A stretch of 33,272 bases of DNA. Source: Coriobacteriales bacterium (GTDB lineage: Bacteria; Actinomycetota; Coriobacteriia; Coriobacteriales; UBA8131). Below the pieces are notes generated by a model. That model saw only the letters and a list, made by a program, of their open reading frames with translations, was not told the DNA's origin and did no database searches. Position 1 is the first letter of the stretch, and every line of letters starts with the position of its first letter. The position numbers and the translations under genes were made by a program. Location: contig JAISGJ010000220.1 of NCBI GenBank assembly GCA_031263105.1, positions 1-33,272 on the forward strand, read 5' to 3'. Below, piece by piece: positions 1,838 through 23,047 of this stretch.

Positions 1838-2090
1838 GTTACTGTTCACACCCCACTGTCATCCCGAGCCCCACTGTCATTCCGAGCTCCGCCGAGGAAT
1901 CCTTGGACACGCAGTGTCCAAGGGCAGGTCGGGGGGCCCTTCGGCCTGCGGTCGGCCGCTGGCGCGGTCGAGGATCCCTCGGCAGGCTCGGGATGACAGT
2001 GGGGCTCGGGATGACAGTGGGGCTCGGGATGACAGTGGGGCTCGGGATGACAGTGGGGTGTGAACAACCGTAGAGCGTGTGAACAGTAAC
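1838..2090. repeat. MITE-like palindromic element, copy 1
   Basis: Ends GTTACTGTTCACAC (1838-1851) and GTGTGAACAGTAAC (2077-2090) are a perfect inverted pair; flanked by perfect 8-bp direct repeat GAGCCAAT (1830-1837 / 2091-2098); internal CCCACTGTCATTCCGAGC arms; 4 x 18-bp tandem GCTCGGGATGACAGTGGG at 1986-2057. Confidence 0.85.
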
Positions 2091-4104: not shown

Positions 4105-4179
4105 GGGCGATTGGCGCAGCGGTAGCGCAGCTGCTTTACACGCAGAAGGTCGGCGGTTCAAATCCGTCATCGCCCACCA
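4105..4179 (+). tRNA. tRNA-Val(TAC)
   Basis: Acceptor GGGCGAT/ATCGCCC, loop TTTACAC (anticodon TAC), GGTTCAAATCC T-arm, encoded CCA. Confidence 0.9.
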
Positions 4180-4191
4180 AGCAGACAACGC

Positions 4192-4355
4192 GTTACACGT
4201 CACACCCCCACTGTCATTCCGAGCTCCGCCGAGGAATCTTTGGACACGCAGTGTCCAACGGTAGGTCAGGGGGCCCTTCGACCTGCGGTCGGCCGCTGGC
4301 GCGACCGAGGATTCCTCGACAGGCTCGGAATGACAGTGGGGGTGTGAACAGTAAC
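4192..4355. repeat. MITE-like palindromic element, copy 2
   Basis: GTTACACGTCACACCCCCACTGTCATTCCGAGC ... GCTCGGAATGACAGTGGGGGTGTGAACAGTAAC; flanks GACAACGC (4184-4191) / GACGACGC (4356-4363). Confidence 0.8.
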
Positions 4356-8585: not shown

Positions 8586-10004
8586 TCACCTCATAAAAAT
8601 GACGCCGAACGTGGGGTACTCCGTACTGCTGAGCGAACAGACGCTGAAGTCCAGGCGGTCGCTGGTGTTCCCGCAGTACCATAGGTCGCTCTCCTCCACC
8701 TGGCTGACCAGTCCCAGGTGGGCTATCCGGCCCTGGCTGTCATAGAGCAGAACCACGCAGCCGGGATACGCCTCACGTATCAAAGAGTCACGCCCCTCGT
8801 AGGTGTTGTCGTAGGATTTCTCCTCCATACCGCGATTCTTCGTCCAATAGGAGCAAAAGTCGCTGGTCCGACAAAATGCCGTGCTCATGCGATACAAGGG
8901 CGGAGATTCGACCTCTCCTAGAATGCTTGAGCTGTACCAGCTTTGCGGCGCATTGTCCACGACCAGGCGCTGCCCGGCCTGCGGCGGCGGCGAGTCGTCC
9001 ATCGCAAGGCCGCCGGCCACCAGGCACTGCGAGACGAAGGAGGTGCAGTTCTGGTCGGTCTCGGCATAGGCGCGATTGCGGCTTTTGACAAAGCGCCGGG
9101 CGTAGGCCACGGCAGCATCCGGGTCGTATCCCGCATCGTCGGCGCTGCTGAGCCCGCTGCCCAAGGTCGGGGCGCGTTCAGGGCCTTGTTCGGCAGCCGG
9201 AGCGGCTTGGACGACCGTGCCGCTGCCGGAGCCGTCGCCCGTGCCGCTCCCCTCGCCCGCGCCGCTCCCCTCGCCCGTGCCACCGCCACCGCCTCCGACA
9301 CTGCCGCCACCGTCGCCAGCAGCTGAGACGATAGGCTGCTCGGCGATGCTGTGGGCCGGACGAGTGCCCAAGGCACCGTTCGCCACAGCCTTGCTGGCCG
9401 CCAGATACTCGCGGGCAGCCACTGCGGCACCCTGGTACACGATGAGGTCGGCGTTGATGCAGCCGCCTTCCATGCCCAGGCAGCGCATCAGGTATCCGGC
9501 CCGCCCGGCATACTGCTCCTGGGTGCAGAAATAGAAGCTGGCGAGAGGGAACGTCGCCTGCGCCCGGCAGAGGCTGTCCCACGTGCTCAGGCCTTGGGAG
9601 TCGACCCAGATGTCTTGGGCCGGTATTCCGTCGCCCAGCAGATACGCGCACATCGACTCGGCCTCCTCCGGCCCGCCGCTGACCAGAATCCCTCCAACCA
9701 GATGGCCACGATACAGGTCGATGGCCCGGTTCAGCCGACCGGCCATTGCCAACGACGGACTATGGCCCTCCCAAGCAGCACCCGGCACGATGACCACATC
9801 ACGCCGAGGCAGCTCATCGGCATATTCGTAATACAGGAGGCCTTCCAAGCCATCGTCCTGCACTGAACGATAGCATGCCCAGGTCGCCGTCAAAACAAGC
9901 ACGGCAAGTGCCAAAACCGCAGCCGCCGCAATGACGGCGCGGCGCTTGCCCCGCTTTCGTCTCCCCGTTGTTTCGACCGGCTCCGTCAAAGCACCCTCAT
10001 TCAC
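8586..10004 (-). CDS. YdcF/DUF218-domain protein fused to C-terminal amidase_6-like domain
   Basis: N-term TM + PRRDVVIVPGAA...LRCAQ-like DUF218 region (GGILVSGGPEEAESM); Gly/Ser linker; AVAYARRFVKSRNRAYAETDQNCTSFVSQCLVAGG amidase_6-like motif. Confidence 0.7.
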   Translation of the reverse strand: MNEGALTEPVETTGRRKRGKRRAVIAAAAVLALAVLVLTATWACYRSVQDDGLEGLLYYEYADELPRRDVVIVPGAAWEGHSPSLAMAGRLNRAIDLYRGHLVGGILVSGGPEEAESMCAYLLGDGIPAQDIWVDSQGLSTWDSLCRAQATFPLASFYFCTQEQYAGRAGYLMRCLGMEGGCINADLIVYQGAAVAAREYLAASKAVANGALGTRPAHSIAEQPIVSAAGDGGGSVGGGGGGTGEGSGAGEGSGTGDGSGSGTVVQAAPAAEQGPERAPTLGSGLSSADDAGYDPDAAVAYARRFVKSRNRAYAETDQNCTSFVSQCLVAGGLAMDDSPPPQAGQRLVVDNAPQSWYSSSILGEVESPPLYRMSTAFCRTSDFCSYWTKNRGMEEKSYDNTYEGRDSLIREAYPGCVVLLYDSQGRIAHLGLVSQVEESDLWYCGNTSDRLDFSVCSLSSTEYPTFGVIFMR

Positions 10005-10070: not shown

Positions 10071-10630
10071 GGCCCATGGAACCGCCCGCCTCTCGTTGCC
10101 GCAGGACACTATGACCCAAGCCCTTCCAGCGTTCACACCCCCACTGTCATCCCGAGCCTGTCGAGGGATCCTCGACCGCGCAAGCGGTCGACTGCGGTCG
10201 GGAGGCGTTTCGACCTGCGGTCGGCTGCTTCGCTCTCCATGGGCCGGGCGGCCCGTCCTCGCTAAGAACAGTCCGCCGGACTGTTCTCCGGGCGCTCGGG
10301 CCCGTGGGCCTGTCGGTTCCATGGGCTCACCCGCTCAGGGGCTCATACGCTGCTTCGCAGCTTCGCCCGGAAACAGCGCACCGCGCTGTTTCCCAGTCCG
10401 CAGGACTGTCGCGCCGTCCTCGCTGAAAACGCGATGCGTTTTCCGGGCGCTCGAACCCTAGGATTCCTCGGCAGGCTCGGCATGTCAGTGGGGGCTCGGA
10501 CTGTCAGTGGGGGCTCGGAATGACCGTGGGGGTGTGAACGGTAACGTTCCGGCACGGATGTGCGACCGGACTTGCGGCGACGGCCCTCGTCCGGCTGCGG
10601 GCCGATGGGGTAGAATGGACCTGCGGTGTT
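10071..10630 (+). promoter_or_regulatory. Promoter block upstream of hsdM, split by repeat copy 3
   Basis: 10546-10618 matches 20128-20200 with 3 mismatches in 73 nt, includes GGGGTAGAATGG (-10-like); 10071-10130 also aligns to 20076-20135. Confidence 0.6.
10131..10545. repeat. MITE-like palindromic element, copy 3 (composite, contains mini-hairpin array)
   Basis: GTTCACACCCCCACTGTCATCCCGAGC ... GGTGTGAACGGTAAC; flanks CTTCCAGC (10123-10130) / GTTCCGGC (10546-10553); uninterrupted homologous site at 20076-20200. Confidence 0.8.
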
Positions 10631-10780
10631 TATAGGGGGGATGCCTGCGGGGGCAATGCTGTGGAAGGGCGTCGCGTGGGCACAGAGCGGTAGCGGGCCC
10701 ACAGCGCAGGCAACAGGGCGACCTATAGCGACCCGGGGCTATTCGTTGGCAGAGAGGTGCCACATGAGGAGGAATGAGCA

Positions 10781-12280
<1,500 letters not shown>

Positions 12281-12353: not shown

Positions 12354-12701
12354 ATGACATCTGACAATTCCGAGATTATCATCTATCGCTCCTCAGACGG
12401 CGAGGTCAAGGTGGACTGCCGCCTCGACGGGGAGACGTTATGGCTCTCCCAAGCGCAAATCGCGCAGGTATTTGGGCGGAGCGTCAGCGTCGCTTCTCGG
12501 CATATCAAGAACATATTTGCCGAGGACGAGCTTGCCGAAAAAAGCAATTTGCAAAATTTGCACATTCCAAATTCCGACAGGCTGGTTATTGCAGAATTTG
12601 CAATAACCACTCGACACGGCGCAATGAAGGGCAAATCGCAAGAACATGCCATGATGCACTATAACCCTGACGTCGTCTGCGCGGGAGGTGAGGAGGAATG
12701 A
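12354..12701 (+). pseudogene. Truncated RhuM-like protein (5' fragment)
   Basis: N-terminal RhuM signature GETLWLSQAQIAQVFGRSVSVASRHIKNIFAEDEL; homology stops at HYNPDVV, reading frame ends inside the RBS/start of hsdS. Confidence 0.6.
12584..12608. repeat. Perfect inverted repeat GGTTATTGCA-GAATT-TGCAATAACC
   Basis: 10-bp arms, 5-bp centre, inside rhuM fragment. Confidence 0.95.
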
Positions 12702-13837
12702 GAACCGAACGAACAGCTCACCAGTTGGCTGACATTATCGACCTTATCGGTGGCGGAACACCGAAAACCAGCATTCCTGAATACTGGGACGGTGAAATTC
12801 CGTGGCTTTCAGTCAAGGACTTCAATAACGATGACCGCTACGTGTATTCCACTGAAAAGTCCATAACCCAAACTGGCTTTAACAATAGCTCTAGCAAGAT
12901 GTTGGCGCACGACGACATCATTATTTCAGCTCGCGGCACAGTGGGCGAACTGGCGATGATTCCGTTCCCGATGGCATTCAATCAGTCTTGCTATGGGATA
13001 AGGGGCAAGAAGGGCGCTATCTTGCAAACCTACCTCTACTATTTATTGAAGGACAGTATCCGACTTCTAGAAAACCAGACACACGGTTCGGTGTTTGACA
13101 CTATCACGCGGAACGCTTTCGCCAACATCAAAGTGAACCTGCCGATGATTCACGAACAGCAGACAGTAGCTGACACCTTAACCGCTTTGGATGACAAGAT
13201 TGCTGCCAACAAGCGTATAAATCATCGTTTAGAACAGATGGCGCAGGCCATCTGGTCGGAGCGATTCGGCGGACTCGAGCCAAACGGCAAGTTGGGTGAA
13301 GTCATTGAGATTTTTGACTCCAAGCGTGTGCCACTTTCCGGCAGTCAGCGTGAGAAAATGGATAAAACCTATCCCTACTACGGCGCAGCTGCACTTATGG
13401 ACTACGTCGACGACTATCTGTTTGATGGCATCTACCTTTTGCTTGGCGAGGATGGAAGCGTGATTGATGATTCGGGCTTCCCAGTACTTCAGTATGTCTG
13501 GGGTAAATTCTGGGTCAACAATCATGCACATATTCTTCAAGGCCGAAACGGCTTTACTGTAGAAAGCCTCTATGTTCTCTTGAGTCAAACTGGCGTAGCA
13601 TCGATTATTACCGGTGCTGTGCAACCCAAAATCAATCAAGCAAACCTCAAGGCTCTCGAAGTGGTCATCCCGTCCAGAAATGAGATGGTTCAATTCAACG
13701 ATACGGTCGACTCGCTTTTCGTGCAGATTCGGAATCATCACGACGAGAACCTCCGTCTTGCCGCCCTGCGCGACACCCTCCTGCCCCGCCTGATGTCCGG
13801 CGAGCTGTCGGTCGCGGACGCAGGCGTTAAACGATGA
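12698..13837 (+). CDS. hsdS: Type I restriction-modification specificity subunit 1
   Basis: Two TRD halves; central INHRLEQMAQAIWSERFGGLEPNG and C-terminal LAALRDTLLPRLMSGEL. Confidence 0.92.
   Translation: MRTERTAHQLADIIDLIGGGTPKTSIPEYWDGEIPWLSVKDFNNDDRYVYSTEKSITQTGFNNSSSKMLAHDDIIISARGTVGELAMIPFPMAFNQSCYGIRGKKGAILQTYLYYLLKDSIRLLENQTHGSVFDTITRNAFANIKVNLPMIHEQQTVADTLTALDDKIAANKRINHRLEQMAQAIWSERFGGLEPNGKLGEVIEIFDSKRVPLSGSQREKMDKTYPYYGAAALMDYVDDYLFDGIYLLLGEDGSVIDDSGFPVLQYVWGKFWVNNHAHILQGRNGFTVESLYVLLSQTGVASIITGAVQPKINQANLKALEVVIPSRNEMVQFNDTVDSLFVQIRNHHDENLRLAALRDTLLPRLMSGELSVADAGVKR
13217..13253 (+). repeat. 37-bp direct repeat in hsdS1 (partner 15437-15473)
   Basis: ataaatcatcgtttagaacagatggcgcaggccatct exact match; contains AGATGGC-GCAG-GCCATCT palindrome. 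Confidence 0.95.
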
Positions 13838-13841
13838 TTTA
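13769..13841 (+). repeat. 73-bp exact direct repeat at hsdS1 3' end (partner 16061-16133)
   Basis: cgcgacaccctcctgccccgcctgatgtccggcgag...gttaaacgatgattta identical at both loci. Confidence 0.95.
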
Positions 13842-13844
13842 TTG

Positions 13845-13893
13845 CTCCTTCTGCCAGTGCATAATGCATTTCTTATCGAAACGGCAGGAGGAG
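13845..13893 (+). promoter_or_regulatory. Hairpin predicted to sequester the recombinase Shine-Dalgarno
   Basis: CTCCTTCTGCC (13845-13855) pairs over 11 positions (one G-U) with GGCAGGAGGAG (13883-13893), which contains the SD before ATG 13896. Confidence 0.55.
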
Positions 13894-13895
13894 TT

Positions 13896-14888
13896 ATGAA
13901 GGACAGGTTGATAACTGAGATTCAGGCACGTATGGCGTTGATGTTAACGCAGGCGCAACTGGAGGAGCTACGGCGGGTGCTGACGCACAGCCTCCACAAC
14001 GTGGAAGTTTCGGAGCGCAAAGCCCCAGACCCACACGAAGCCGCCGAGAATGGAGGGTTGTTGGACGTGTTTATCGCTGCGAAACGGATTGAGGGCTGTT
14101 CGGAGAAGTCGCTGAGATACTATACCGCGACCATCCGTGCGATGCTCGGCACCGTAAAAAGGCCCGTGCGCGAAATCGCAACGGACGACCTGCGAGGCTA
14201 TTTGGCAAGCTACCAGAAGGAGCGCGGCTCCTCCAGAGTGACTGTGGACAACATGCGGCGAATATTCAGCAGCTTCTTTGGGTGGCTGGAGGACGAGGAC
14301 TACATCCTCAAAAGCCCCGTGCGGCGCATCCACAAAGTCAAGGCGGAAAAGACCATCAAGGAGACCTTTTCCGACGAAAGCCTAGAGCTGCTCCGCGATG
14401 CCTGCGAGGAAATCCGCGACCTCGCGATGATAGACCTGCTCGCCTCAACGGGGATGCGCGTGGGCGAACTGGTGCAGCTGAACCGCGCAGACATCAACTT
14501 CCACGAACGGGAATGCGTGGTCTTTGGCAAAGGCGGCAGCGAGCGAGTGGTCTACTTCGACGCCCGGACGAAAATCCACCTGCTGAACTACCTCGACAGC
14601 CGAAGCGACAACAGCCCCGCACTGTTCGTGTCGCTGCCCCTGCCCCACGAGCGCCTGCTCATCGGCGGCGTGGAGACACGCCTACGCGAAATCGGCAAGC
14701 GAGCTGACATGCAGAAAGTACACCCCCACAAATTCCGCCGCACCCTCGCCACCCGCGCCATAGACAAAGGAATGCCCATCGAACAAGTGCAGCGGCTACT
14801 CGGTCATGTCAAAATAGACACGACCATGCACTACGCTATGGTCAACCAAGCAAACGTGAAGAACTCGCACAGGAAATTTATCGGATGA
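13896..14888 (+). CDS. Tyrosine recombinase/integrase
   Basis: STGMRVGEL, HKFRRTLATRA, LLGHVKIDTTMHY: R-HxxR-H-Y catalytic set; N-terminal SAM-like core-binding domain. Confidence 0.92.
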   Translation: MKDRLITEIQARMALMLTQAQLEELRRVLTHSLHNVEVSERKAPDPHEAAENGGLLDVFIAAKRIEGCSEKSLRYYTATIRAMLGTVKRPVREIATDDLRGYLASYQKERGSSRVTVDNMRRIFSSFFGWLEDEDYILKSPVRRIHKVKAEKTIKETFSDESLELLRDACEEIRDLAMIDLLASTGMRVGELVQLNRADINFHERECVVFGKGGSERVVYFDARTKIHLLNYLDSRSDNSPALFVSLPLPHERLLIGGVETRLREIGKRADMQKVHPHKFRRTLATRAIDKGMPIEQVQRLLGHVKIDTTMHYAMVNQANVKNSHRKFIG

Positions 14889-16129
14889 GGGAGGCGGACG
14901 AAATGAGCAAATGGGAACGGCTTGCGCTTGGGGATGTCGCAGGCATCAAGCACGGTTACGCCTTTAAAGGCGAGTACTTCTGCGACGAACCTACGCACTT
15001 TTTGCTCTTGACTCCGGGGAATTTTATGATTGGTGGGGGCTTTCAGGAAAAGCCGAAATTCTATAACGGTCCTATTCCCGAGAGTTATGTTCTTGCAAAA
15101 GACGATTTAATCGTCACAATGACTGATTTGAGCAAACGAGGCGATACGCTGGGTTATTCGGCACTTGTTCCCACAAGCAACCGCTATTTACACAATCAGC
15201 GCATAGGTTTGGTAACAATGAAGAATTCCGAGGTATTAAAGGAGTTCGTTTACTGGCTAATGCGAACTTGGGACTATCAAAGGTTCATCATAAACCATGC
15301 TTCTGGTAGCACGGTAAAACACACATCCCCTAAGACAATCTTGTCTTACGAATTTGCGGCTCCCCCTATTGAGGAGCAACGAATAATCGTGGCAACGTTG
15401 TCTGCCATAGATGACAAAATCGCCAACAACAGGGCGATAAATCATCGTTTAGAACAGATGGCGCAGGCCATCTTCAAATCATGGTTCGTGGACTTCGAGC
15501 CGTGGGGCGGGAAGATGCCGGATGATTGGCGGGAAGGCACGATTTCCGATTTGGGCGATGTCATCGGTGGCAGTACGCCGTCCAAAGCAAAGCCCGAATA
15601 TTACGCCGAACATGGTATCGCTTGGATTACACCCAAAGATTTGTCTATCAACAAGAGCAAGTTCATAGCTCGCGGAGCAAATGACATCACGGAGTTTGGA
15701 CTTCGCAACAGTAATGCACGTCTGATGCCGCCGGGAGCTGTCCTTTTCAGCTCTAGGGCACCTATCGGTTACATTGCCGTAGCGAGTGGTGAAGTCTGCA
15801 CCAATCAGGGCTTTAAGTCCATCGTTCCGAAAGAGACCGTTGGCACGGCTTTCGTTTACTGCTTCCTGATTGAGAATCTCCAAACCATAGAGAGCATGGC
15901 TTCGGGTTCGACTTTCAAAGAAGTATCGGGCACAACAATGAAAGGCATTCCCGCTGCTATTCCCACCGATGACACATTTCGCCGCTTTCAAGAAGAGTGC
16001 ACCTCCCTTTTCGAGAAGCAAGAACTTCTGGAAGCAGAGAACGCTCGCCTCGCCGCCCTACGCGACACCCTCCTGCCCCGCCTGATGTCCGGCGAGCTGT
16101 CGGTCGCGGACGCAGGCGTTAAACGATGA
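14885..16129 (+). CDS. hsdS: Type I restriction-modification specificity subunit 2
   Basis: Two TRDs; INHRLEQMAQAIFKSWFVDFEP central and LAALRDTLLPRLMSGELSVADAGVKR C-term identical to hsdS1; start overlaps integrase stop. Confidence 0.92.
   Translation: MREADEMSKWERLALGDVAGIKHGYAFKGEYFCDEPTHFLLLTPGNFMIGGGFQEKPKFYNGPIPESYVLAKDDLIVTMTDLSKRGDTLGYSALVPTSNRYLHNQRIGLVTMKNSEVLKEFVYWLMRTWDYQRFIINHASGSTVKHTSPKTILSYEFAAPPIEEQRIIVATLSAIDDKIANNRAINHRLEQMAQAIFKSWFVDFEPWGGKMPDDWREGTISDLGDVIGGSTPSKAKPEYYAEHGIAWITPKDLSINKSKFIARGANDITEFGLRNSNARLMPPGAVLFSSRAPIGYIAVASGEVCTNQGFKSIVPKETVGTAFVYCFLIENLQTIESMASGSTFKEVSGTTMKGIPAAIPTDDTFRRFQEECTSLFEKQELLEAENARLAALRDTLLPRLMSGELSVADAGVKR
15437..15473 (+). repeat. 37-bp direct repeat in hsdS2 (partner 13217-13253)
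   Basis: Exact match. Confidence 0.95.
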
Positions 16130-16133
16130 TTTA
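16061..16133 (+). repeat. 73-bp exact direct repeat at hsdS2 3' end (partner 13769-13841)
   Basis: Exact match. Confidence 0.95.
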
Positions 16134-20075: not shown

Positions 20076-20257
20076 GGCCTATGGAACCGCCCGCTTCTCG
20101 TTGCCGCCGAGCGACATGGCCCGAGCCGTTCCAGCACGGATGTGCGACCGGGCTTGCGGCGGCGGCCCTCGTCCGGCTGCGGGCCGATGGGGTAGAATGG
20201 ATCTACGTTGTTTATCAGGGGATACCCGCGAGGGCAAAGGCGACAGGAGGGCGTCAC
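20076..20257 (+). promoter_or_regulatory. Uninterrupted promoter block upstream of MmeI-like gene (homologue of block at 10071-10630)
   Basis: GTTCCAGCACGGATGTGCGACCGGGCTTGCGG...GGGGTAGAATGG near-identical to the hsdM upstream region. Confidence 0.6.
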
Positions 20258-23047
20258 GTGGACATGAGGCGGCAGCGGGCGGCAGCGGCGGCCTTCGCCG
20301 GGAAGTGGGCGGGGCGCGGCTACGAGAAGGGCGACACCGCCCCGTTCTGGCTGGAGTTCCTGCGCGAGTGCCTGGGCGTGGCCGACCCCGACTCACTGGC
20401 CAGGTTCGAGAGGCGCACCGACGCGGGGTTCCCCGACGTGACCATCTCAGACACCGGGGTCATCATCGAGCAGAAGTCCCTGGGGGTGGACCTCGACAAG
20501 GCCGAGACCCGCCAGAGGCGGCAGGTCACCCCCTACGAGCAGGCGCTCAGCTACGCCCAGTCGCTGCCCCCCTCGCAAAGCCCGCGCTTCATCGTCACCT
20601 GCAACTTCGAGACCTTCCGCATCTACGACCGCGAGGCCGACCAGTCCGGCGAGGCCTTCACGCAGGTCGGGCTCGAGGAGCTGCCCGAGCAGGTGCACCT
20701 GTTCGGCTTCATGGCAGACCCCGCCAACTCCCGCACGGAGCGCGAGCGCAAGGTCTCCGTCGAGGCGGGCGCGCTCATCGGGGAGCTGCACCGCAGGCTC
20801 CGGGCCCAGTACCCCGACCCGGAGGGCGCCGAGAGCCGCCACTCGCTGAACGTGCTCTGCGTCCGGCTGGTCTTCCTGCTCTTCGCCGAGGACGCGGGGC
20901 TGCTCGGGAGGAAGGACTTCCTCTACGACTACCTGCGGGAGGTGCCCGCCGGCAAGGGGATGTTCCGCCGCGCCCTGCTCGACCTCTTCGACGTGCTGGA
21001 CACGCCCGCAGACGAGCGCAGGCTCTACCCGGGGGACGCGCTCGCCGGCTTCCCCCACATCAACGGCGGCCTGTTCGCAGAGCGCATCGAGGTCCCCGTC
21101 TTCACCGACGACATCAAGCACCACCTGCTCCAGAGGACCTCCCTGGGCTTCGACTGGTCGGCGATAAGCCCGGTCGTCTTCGGCGGGGTCTTCGAGTCCA
21201 CCCTGAACCCCGAGACCCGCGCCGGCGGCGGCATGCACTACACGAGCGTCGAGAACATCCACAAGGTCATAGGCCCGCTGTTCTTAGACGCGCTCGAGGA
21301 GGAGCTCGACGGCATCGTCGCCGCAGGGCTGCCGGAGAGGGCCTTGGCGCAGCGGCTCCGGGGCTTCCAGGACAGGCTCGCGTCCCTGCGCTTCCTCGAC
21401 CCCGCCTGCGGCTCCGGCAACTTCCTCACCGAGGCCTACCTCTGCCTGCGCCGCCTGGAGAACCGCGCTCTCATGCGGCTCCACGGCGGGCAGGGCACGC
21501 TCGACCTCGGCGACGGCGGCGCCGTCAAGGTGGGCCTCTCGCAGTTCTACGGCATCGAGATAAACGACTTCGCCGTGCGCGTGGCCGCCACCGCACTCTG
21601 GATAGCCGAGCTCCAAGCCAACCGGGAGAGCGAGGGCGTCACCCACCGCGCCATCGAGGACTTCCCCCTCAAGGACAGCGCCAACATCGTGCTCGCCAAC
21701 GCCCTCGCCACCGACTGGGACGACGTGCTGCCCGCCGACGAGTGCAGCTACGTCATGGGCAACCCGCCGTTCTTGGGGTATTCGACCATGAGCAAGCAAC
21801 AGGCGGCGGAGATGCAGGCCATCTTCGAGGGCACCAAGGGAGCCGGCACGCTTGACTACGTAGCCGCCTGGTACAGGAAGGCCGCCGACTACTCGGACGA
21901 CACGGGCGTCCACTGCGCCTTCGTCTCAACCAACTCGATCTGTCAAGGGCAGCAGGTCGAGCCGCTCTGGAAGCCTCTGTTCGAGCGCGGCATCCACATC
22001 AACTTCGCCCACAAGAGCTTCGTCTGGAACAGCGAGGCGACAGACCTCGCCCACGTTCACGTCGTCGTCGTCGGGTTCTCGCACGAGCCTGACCGACCGC
22101 TCCTGTTCGAGTACCTGGGCGGAAGGGGCGCGGCGACCGTCCGCCCGGTGAACAACATCAACGCCTATCTCGTAGACGCAGACAATGTGTTCGTCGCAAA
22201 GCGGTCGAAGCCGATGAGCGACGTGCCGCCCATGACCGCCGGAGGCAAGCCCACGGAGGGAGGCAACCTCATCCTGTCCCAAGACGAGAGGGACGAGCTA
22301 GTCTGCAGGGAGCCGCTTGCCGAGAGGTACATCCGCAGCTACTCGATGGGCGCCGAGTTCATCAACGGCATCCCCCGCTACTGCCTGTGGCTCGTGGACT
22401 GCCCTCCCCACGAGCTGCGCCAGATGCCCCTCGTGCGGGAGCGGGTCGAGCGGGTGCGCGAAATGCGCCTGGCGAGCTCGAAGGATGCGACGCGCAGAAA
22501 GGCCGCCACGCCGACGCTGTTCGATGAGATACGAGCGATTTCCGGTGACCACTATATAGCAGTACCGCAGGTCTCCTCCGAGAGACGAAACTACATACCC
22601 ATCGGGTTCCTGACGAACCAGACGGTTCCGGGCAACATGCTCTTCGTGATCGGAGGGGCCGACACGTACCTGTTCGGATTGCTCACCTCCCAGTTCCACA
22701 ACGCCTGGATGCGCACGATCGCCGGACGGCTGAAGTCAGATTATCGCTATTCGAACACACTGGTCTACAACACCTTCGTCTTCCCCGACGCGACTGAGGG
22801 GCAGAAGCAGGGAATCTCGGCTCGTGCCCAAGCGGTCCTTGATGCCCGCGCCAAATTCCCCGAAAGCTCCCTCGCCGACCTCTACGACCCCCTCGCCATG
22901 CCGCCCGACCTCCTCCGCGCCCACCGCTCCCTCGACCGCGCCGTCGAGCAGGCCTACGGCGTCACCTTCAACGGCGACGAGGAGCGAATTGTCGCGCATT
23001 TATTTGGGTTGTACTCGCAGGAAATCGAACATTTCGATGCCCAGTAA
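20258..23047 (+). CDS. MmeI-like (Type IIL/IIG) DNA methyltransferase, likely single-chain R-M enzyme
   Basis: FPDVTISDTGVIIEQK (PD-ExK-like nuclease), FLDPACGSGNF, GNPPFLG, MmeI-type domain order; GTG start 7 nt after AGGAGG. Confidence 0.85.
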   Translation: MDMRRQRAAAAAFAGKWAGRGYEKGDTAPFWLEFLRECLGVADPDSLARFERRTDAGFPDVTISDTGVIIEQKSLGVDLDKAETRQRRQVTPYEQALSYAQSLPPSQSPRFIVTCNFETFRIYDREADQSGEAFTQVGLEELPEQVHLFGFMADPANSRTERERKVSVEAGALIGELHRRLRAQYPDPEGAESRHSLNVLCVRLVFLLFAEDAGLLGRKDFLYDYLREVPAGKGMFRRALLDLFDVLDTPADERRLYPGDALAGFPHINGGLFAERIEVPVFTDDIKHHLLQRTSLGFDWSAISPVVFGGVFESTLNPETRAGGGMHYTSVENIHKVIGPLFLDALEEELDGIVAAGLPERALAQRLRGFQDRLASLRFLDPACGSGNFLTEAYLCLRRLENRALMRLHGGQGTLDLGDGGAVKVGLSQFYGIEINDFAVRVAATALWIAELQANRESEGVTHRAIEDFPLKDSANIVLANALATDWDDVLPADECSYVMGNPPFLGYSTMSKQQAAEMQAIFEGTKGAGTLDYVAAWYRKAADYSDDTGVHCAFVSTNSICQGQQVEPLWKPLFERGIHINFAHKSFVWNSEATDLAHVHVVVVGFSHEPDRPLLFEYLGGRGAATVRPVNNINAYLVDADNVFVAKRSKPMSDVPPMTAGGKPTEGGNLILSQDERDELVCREPLAERYIRSYSMGAEFINGIPRYCLWLVDCPPHELRQMPLVRERVERVREMRLASSKDATRRKAATPTLFDEIRAISGDHYIAVPQVSSERRNYIPIGFLTNQTVPGNMLFVIGGADTYLFGLLTSQFHNAWMRTIAGRLKSDYRYSNTLVYNTFVFPDATEGQKQGISARAQAVLDARAKFPESSLADLYDPLAMPPDLLRAHRSLDRAVEQAYGVTFNGDEERIVAHLFGLYSQEIEHFDAQ

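What the first reader, a model, noticed from the sequence alone, without database searches (positions are those of the whole stretch)
10123..10553. Filled site with a matching empty site 10 kb away
The hsdM upstream block reads CCCTTCCAGC-[415 bp element]-GTTCCGGCACGGATGTGCGACC, whereas the homologous block at 20121-20150 reads GCCGTTCCAGCACGGATGTGCGACC with no insert. The 8-mer (C/G)TTCC(A/G)GC is present once in the empty site and twice around the element, fixing boundaries and TSD length independently of copies 1 and 2.
Basis: seen in the sequence. Interest (0 to 1): 0.75.

Follow-up and report, generated by a model that had tools for sequence, protein, structure and literature searches.

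The report
Old palindromic mini-transposon before hsdM
A 415-base mini-transposon with no genes, one of roughly 200 or more relatives in this actinobacterial genome, once jumped into the stretch before a restriction-enzyme gene and duplicated 8 bases there; a sister copy of that stretch 10 kb away still shows the site before the jump, and an IS66-family transposase is the likely mover.

Summary
The 60 bp left of the element and the 154 bp right of it match one contiguous block at 20076-20280, and the two alignments overlap there by one 8-mer (20128-20135, GTTCCAGC). That 8-mer appears on both sides of the element (10123-10130 CTTCCAGC, 10546-10553 GTTCCGGC). The empty site is a paralogue (the region before an MmeI-type gene), not an orthologue. 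Genome-wide data support the reading independently: the terminal sequence GTTACNGTTCACACCC occurs 492 times in the 2.9-Mb assembly (reversed control 0), and 94 paired ends show an 8-bp duplication and no other length. The window copy has lost 6 nt (GTTACC) of its left end and its two duplicates differ at two of eight bases, so it is old. The elements are long palindromes without genes, i.e. MITEs. Two intact insertion sequences with matching ends and 8-bp duplications carry IS66-family transposases, one in the same bacterial family and one on a viral contig. No IS66 transposase was found in the assembled host genome. It is a new, very abundant member of a known kind. Paired arms of the palindrome co-vary, which is the only mildly surprising feature.

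The parts
10131..10545 (.). MITE copy 3 (the finding), 415 bp, palindromic, no gene; left end lacks outer 6 nt (GTTACC) of the terminal inverted repeat
   Evidence: folds as one DNA strand at -127.5 kcal/mol versus shuffled -89.3, z -9.05
10123..10130 (+). left target-site duplicate CTTCCAGC
   Evidence: compare 20128-20135
10546..10553 (+). right target-site duplicate GTTCCGGC
   Evidence: compare 20128-20135
20128..20135 (+). empty target site GTTCCAGC in the paralogous block
20076..20280 (+). uninterrupted paralogue of the hsdM upstream block, in front of the MmeI-type gene
   Evidence: MmeI Pfam domains
10071..10698 (+). interrupted upstream block of hsdM (contains the element)
1838..2090 (.). 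copy 1 of the same family, 253 bp, exact duplication GAGCCAAT on both sides
4192..4355 (.). copy 2 of the same family, 164 bp, duplication GACAACGC / GACGACGC
10781..12280 (+). hsdM, type I DNA methyltransferase (N6_Mtase, HsdM_N), starting 235 bp downstream of the element

Best explanation
The insert is a non-autonomous miniature inverted-repeat transposable element (MITE). Shown: it belongs to a high-copy family with termini GTTACNGTTCACACCC, and members are flanked by 8-bp target duplications. It lies in a duplicated block upstream of R-M genes, between the divergent genes starting at 10004 (-) and 10781 (+), and the copy of that block in front of the MmeI-type gene keeps the unoccupied site. 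Inferred: a transposase of the IS66 family (ISBst12-like group) binds the terminal repeats and moves the element in trans with staggered cuts 8 bp apart. Inferred: the window copy has since decayed (6 nt lost from its left end, duplicates differing at two of eight bases), so it is probably no longer mobile. Inferred: it has little effect on hsdM, because the conserved 154 bp next to hsdM lies downstream of it.
For: Filled/empty site comparison. 492 terminal sequences in the host genome, reversed control 0. 8-bp duplication over 94 pairs, no other length. Core 160-165 bp copies form one palindrome. Insertion sequence in L322:695-2966, 2272 bp: ends GTTACTGTTCACA on both sides, exact duplication TAAATGGA, IS66 transposase PF03050 E 1e-13. 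Insertion sequence in L327:718-3019 from a genome of the same family: ends GTTACAGGTCACACC on both sides, duplication CAAAACGG/TAAAACGG, transposase above the NCBIfam IS66 cut-off, 183.4 against 180 bits. A third IS66-type transposase gene (L328) abuts GCTACTGTTCACAC. Published ISDge4, IS66 family ISBst12 group, has ends GTAACTGCTCAGCA / GTGACTACTCAGCA and an 8-nt repeat (PMC12898284). Relative G009 has about 35 sister elements of about 145 bp with the same type of ends, 8-bp duplications in most fetched cases, and a short stretch resembling the IS66 transposase at a contig end.
Against: No IS66 transposase was found in the assembled host genome; the assembly is 86% complete and in 250 contigs, many ending in repeats, so absence is weak evidence. 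The similarity between MITE and insertion sequences is confined to about 15 terminal bases. L322 lies on a viral contig of another host.
Confidence: 0.85

Rival explanations
1. The same MITE, but moved by a transposase other than IS66 that also makes 8-bp duplications (for example IS256, ISL3 or IS1595 type) and is missing from the assembly.
For: No IS66 transposase in the assembled host genome; only about 15 terminal bases link it to the IS66 elements.
Against: Both complete insertion sequences found with these ends and 8-bp duplications encode IS66 transposases.
Confidence: 0.1
2. The element was removed from the paralogue at 20.1 kb rather than inserted at 10.1 kb (both blocks once carried it).
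For: The two blocks are clearly copies of each other.
Against: The 20.1-kb block has a single 8-mer, no second duplicate and no footprint; precise loss would need recombination between the 8-bp duplicates.
Confidence: 0.04
3. A repeat array of REP/BIME type rather than a transposon-like insertion; the flanking 8-mers match by chance.
For: High copy number, palindromic, with tandem amplification of an inner 18-bp unit in some copies.
Against: From general knowledge REP elements do not duplicate their target; here 37 of 94 pairs are exact at 8 bp, against 0 or 1 at other lengths of 4 or more.
Confidence: 0.01

Closest known systems
IS66 family, ISBst12 group (ISBst12; ISDge4 of Deinococcus geothermalis, PMC12898284)
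   Same: Termini of the form GTNACTGYTCA, 8-bp duplication, IS66-type transposase in the presumed autonomous partners
   Different: The window element has no gene and is a palindrome of 415 bp (typical copies 160-165 bp); the partners carry an extra small reading frame (L322 upstream; L327 on the opposite strand), whereas the ISBst12 group is described as single-ORF
Bacterial MITEs such as MITECca01 of Cardinium (PMC9769881, from an IS982 element) and MITEPsy1 of Pseudomonas (PMC3189936, probably from ISPsy2)
   Same: Short, gene-free, several to many copies, terminal repeats shared with a full-length insertion sequence
   Different: Different transposase family; here 8-bp duplications, near full-length palindrome, and a high copy number (492 termini)
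Mobile insertion cassettes (MITE ends around a passenger gene)
   Same: L273:956-2606 in a relative: the same type of ends and an exact 8-bp duplication around a single AlbA_2/HATPase gene, no transposase
   Different: The window element carries no gene
REP/BIME palindromes
   Same: Abundant extragenic palindromes
   Different: No target duplication in REP elements; here one of constant length

Membership tests
MITE (non-autonomous DNA transposon) | Short, no transposase gene | tested here: met
   415 bp; reading frames in it are incidental; typical copies 160-165 bp
MITE (non-autonomous DNA transposon) | Terminal inverted repeats | tested here: met
   GTTACNGTTCACACCC at both ends in the family; in this copy the left end lacks the outer 6 nt
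MITE (non-autonomous DNA transposon) | Target-site duplication of constant length | tested here: met
   8 bp, 94 pairs
MITE (non-autonomous DNA transposon) | Shares ends with an autonomous element in the same genome | tested here: inconclusive
   Found in another genome of the same family and on a viral contig, not in the host assembly
MITE (non-autonomous DNA transposon) | Moves when the transposase is supplied | not testable with these tools
   needs a transposition assay
IS66 family / ISBst12 group (as the mobilising system) | IS66-type DDE transposase between these ends | tested here: met
   L322 PF03050 E 1e-13; L327 NCBIfam NF033517 183.4 bits, cut-off 180
IS66 family / ISBst12 group (as the mobilising system) | 8-bp duplication | tested here: met
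   L322 8/8, L327 7/8
IS66 family / ISBst12 group (as the mobilising system) | Single transposase gene without the accessory genes of classical IS66 | tested here: inconclusive
   One large gene plus one small frame: L322 104 aa, no IS66 accessory domain; L327 76 aa on the opposite strand, not scanned
REP/BIME | No target-site duplication | tested here: not met
   8-bp duplication present

The most novel reading that the evidence does not exclude
The two arms of the palindrome, including the transposase-binding ends, are kept complementary after mutation (by hairpin-templated correction, or because an RNA or DNA hairpin is under selection), so that the ends of a given copy evolve together and new end types arise in matched pairs.
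Probability: 0.2. Interest if true: 0.5.

Novelty: new member of a known kind. Interest (0 to 1): 0.33.

Why it matters
It gives a clean filled/empty pair and a genome-wide rule (8 bp, GTTAC ends) for an abundant palindromic repeat family of an uncultured Coriobacteriia-like lineage, and links that family to IS66-type transposases. It also gives a data set in which pairwise evolution of transposon ends can be tested. It does not change what is known of R-M systems.

Tried and rejected
Orthologous empty site in other genomes: 80 hsdM loci have no homologous upstream block, and no same-genus genome appeared in the searches. IS66 transposase in the host genome: none with the Pfam profile or with two related proteins. 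Idea that the AlbA_2/HATPase gene found inside one such element (L273) is itself the mover: of its relatives retrieved from other genomes none is flanked by these ends with a duplication, so it is a one-off passenger. A 1333-bp candidate element in G009 (L272) has no matching duplication and is probably two unrelated ends. Plasmid search with the core element: no match. Rfam: only two tRNAs in the window. Sigma-70-type promoters and terminators around the element: none. Literature search for the repeat sequence itself: no paper.

Full report
Observation. The window (G000:C28, a 2.9-Mb assembly in 250 contigs, 86% complete) holds at 10131-10545 a 415-bp insert between CTTCCAGC (10123-10130) and GTTCCGGC (10546-10553). 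The flanks, 10071-10130 and 10545-10698, align to 20076-20135 and 20127-20280. In the paralogue the two flanks share the single 8-mer GTTCCAGC at 20128-20135; the base 20127 also matches 10545, the last base of the element, by chance. The block occurs nowhere else in the genome.

Is it more than chance? The right end reads GGGGTGTGAACGGTAAC. Its reverse complement, generalised to GTTACNGTTCACACCC with up to two mismatches, occurs 243 times forward and 249 times reverse in the genome, and never in the reversed control. In 1.24 Mb of fetched contigs I paired 95 left/right ends (85-692 bp apart, most often 160-165). Comparing the bases outside the ends, identity is 0.70 per base for a duplication of 8 and 0.25-0.30 for every other length; 37 of 94 are exact at 8. 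Copies 1 and 2 in the window follow the rule (GAGCCAAT exact; GACAACGC/GACGACGC). The finding's copy follows it too, but its left end starts at GTTCACACC: six outer bases, GTTACC, are missing, and each duplicate differs by one base from the empty site. It is an old, decayed insertion.

What the family is. Aligned copies of 160-165 bp give one near-complete palindrome (consensus fold -114 kcal/mol), with no gene. The window copy is a longer variant with extra internal hairpins; as a DNA strand it folds at -127.5 kcal/mol against -89.3 for shuffles, z -9.05. Paired copies make up 1.7% of the fetched DNA, which was chosen to contain them. Insertions avoid long open frames compared with random positions (median stop-free span 980 versus 1593 nt), which points to intergenic spacers for many of them. 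The duplicated octamers show no strong sequence preference.

Who moves it. The host assembly has no IS66 transposase. A scan of viral contigs for the terminal sequence gave five loci. One, L322, carries a 2272-bp element with GTTACTGTTCACA at both ends, exact duplication TAAATGGA and a 556-aa IS66-type transposase. A search with this protein found L327 in a genome of the same family as the host: 2302 bp, GTTACAGGTCACACC at both ends, duplication CAAAACGG/TAAAACGG, transposase above the curated IS66 cut-off. L328, from the same order, has an IS66-type transposase gene next to GCTACTGTTCACAC. A published ISBst12-group element, ISDge4, has ends GTAACTGCTCAGCA and an 8-nt repeat (PMC12898284). A relative, G009, holds about 35 elements of roughly 145 bp with ends GTTTCTGTTCACGCCC, with matching 8-bp flanks in most fetched cases, and a short match to the IS66 transposase at a contig end. 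The best model is a MITE family moved in trans by an ISBst12-like IS66 transposase; the trans step is inferred.

A mild surprise. Arms of the same copy resemble each other more than arms of different copies (0.881 versus 0.832 over 16 terminal bases, none of 5000 shuffles as high) and slightly more than the arms of the copy with the nearest interior (0.85-0.87). On 24 aligned core copies, 12 pairs have changes on both sides against 4.0 expected from shuffles, and sliding the partners destroys this. Shared descent of subfamilies explains part of it, and one-sided changes remain common (82 one-sided against 24 matched), so I do not claim active correction.

Effect on the R-M locus. The insert lies between divergent genes (10004 on the minus strand, hsdM from 10781 on the plus strand). 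The conserved 154-bp part of the block lies between the element and hsdM, so hsdM control may be unchanged; no consensus promoter or terminator was found either way. The block before hsdM resembles the start region of the MmeI-type gene, which suggests that the block was copied from there (inference from the alignment).

Noticed in passing
window 12698-16133: Two hsdS genes in the same direction (12698-13837, 14885-16129) with a tyrosine recombinase gene (13842-14888) between them and 97-bp and 106-bp direct repeats (13745-13841/16037-16133, 94%; 13148-13253/15368-15473, 73%): looks like a recombining type I specificity locus.
   Followed up: no
window 10071-10698 and 20076-20280: The regions before hsdM and before the MmeI-type gene are diverged copies of one block found only here in the genome; the hsdM copy seems to contain a decayed version of the start of the MmeI-type gene.
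   Followed up: partly
L273:956-2606: In a relative, the same type of ends with an exact 8-bp duplication (GAAGAACC) enclose a single AlbA_2/HATPase/HTH gene and no transposase: a MITE that picked up a passenger gene.
   Followed up: yes
L032, L035, L036, L037: hsdM relatives at 82-89% identity are recorded in assemblies named as Spirochaetaceae, Desulfobulbaceae, Deferribacteraceae and Puniceicoccales: recent transfer between phyla or mis-binned contigs.
   Followed up: no
window 1974-2066: In copy 1 an inner unit of about 18 bp (ATGACAGTGGGGCTCGGG) is repeated about four times in tandem near the right end; the finding's copy has a similar degenerate triplication at about 10480-10540.
   Followed up: no
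window 4105-4192: Copy 2 sits 15 bases behind the 3' end of a tRNA gene (4105-4176).
   Followed up: no
L272, L274, L275, L282: In relative G009 another repeated hairpin, GTAGGGGACGCTGTCCACAGCGTCCC, is found inside or beside the sister elements.
   Followed up: no
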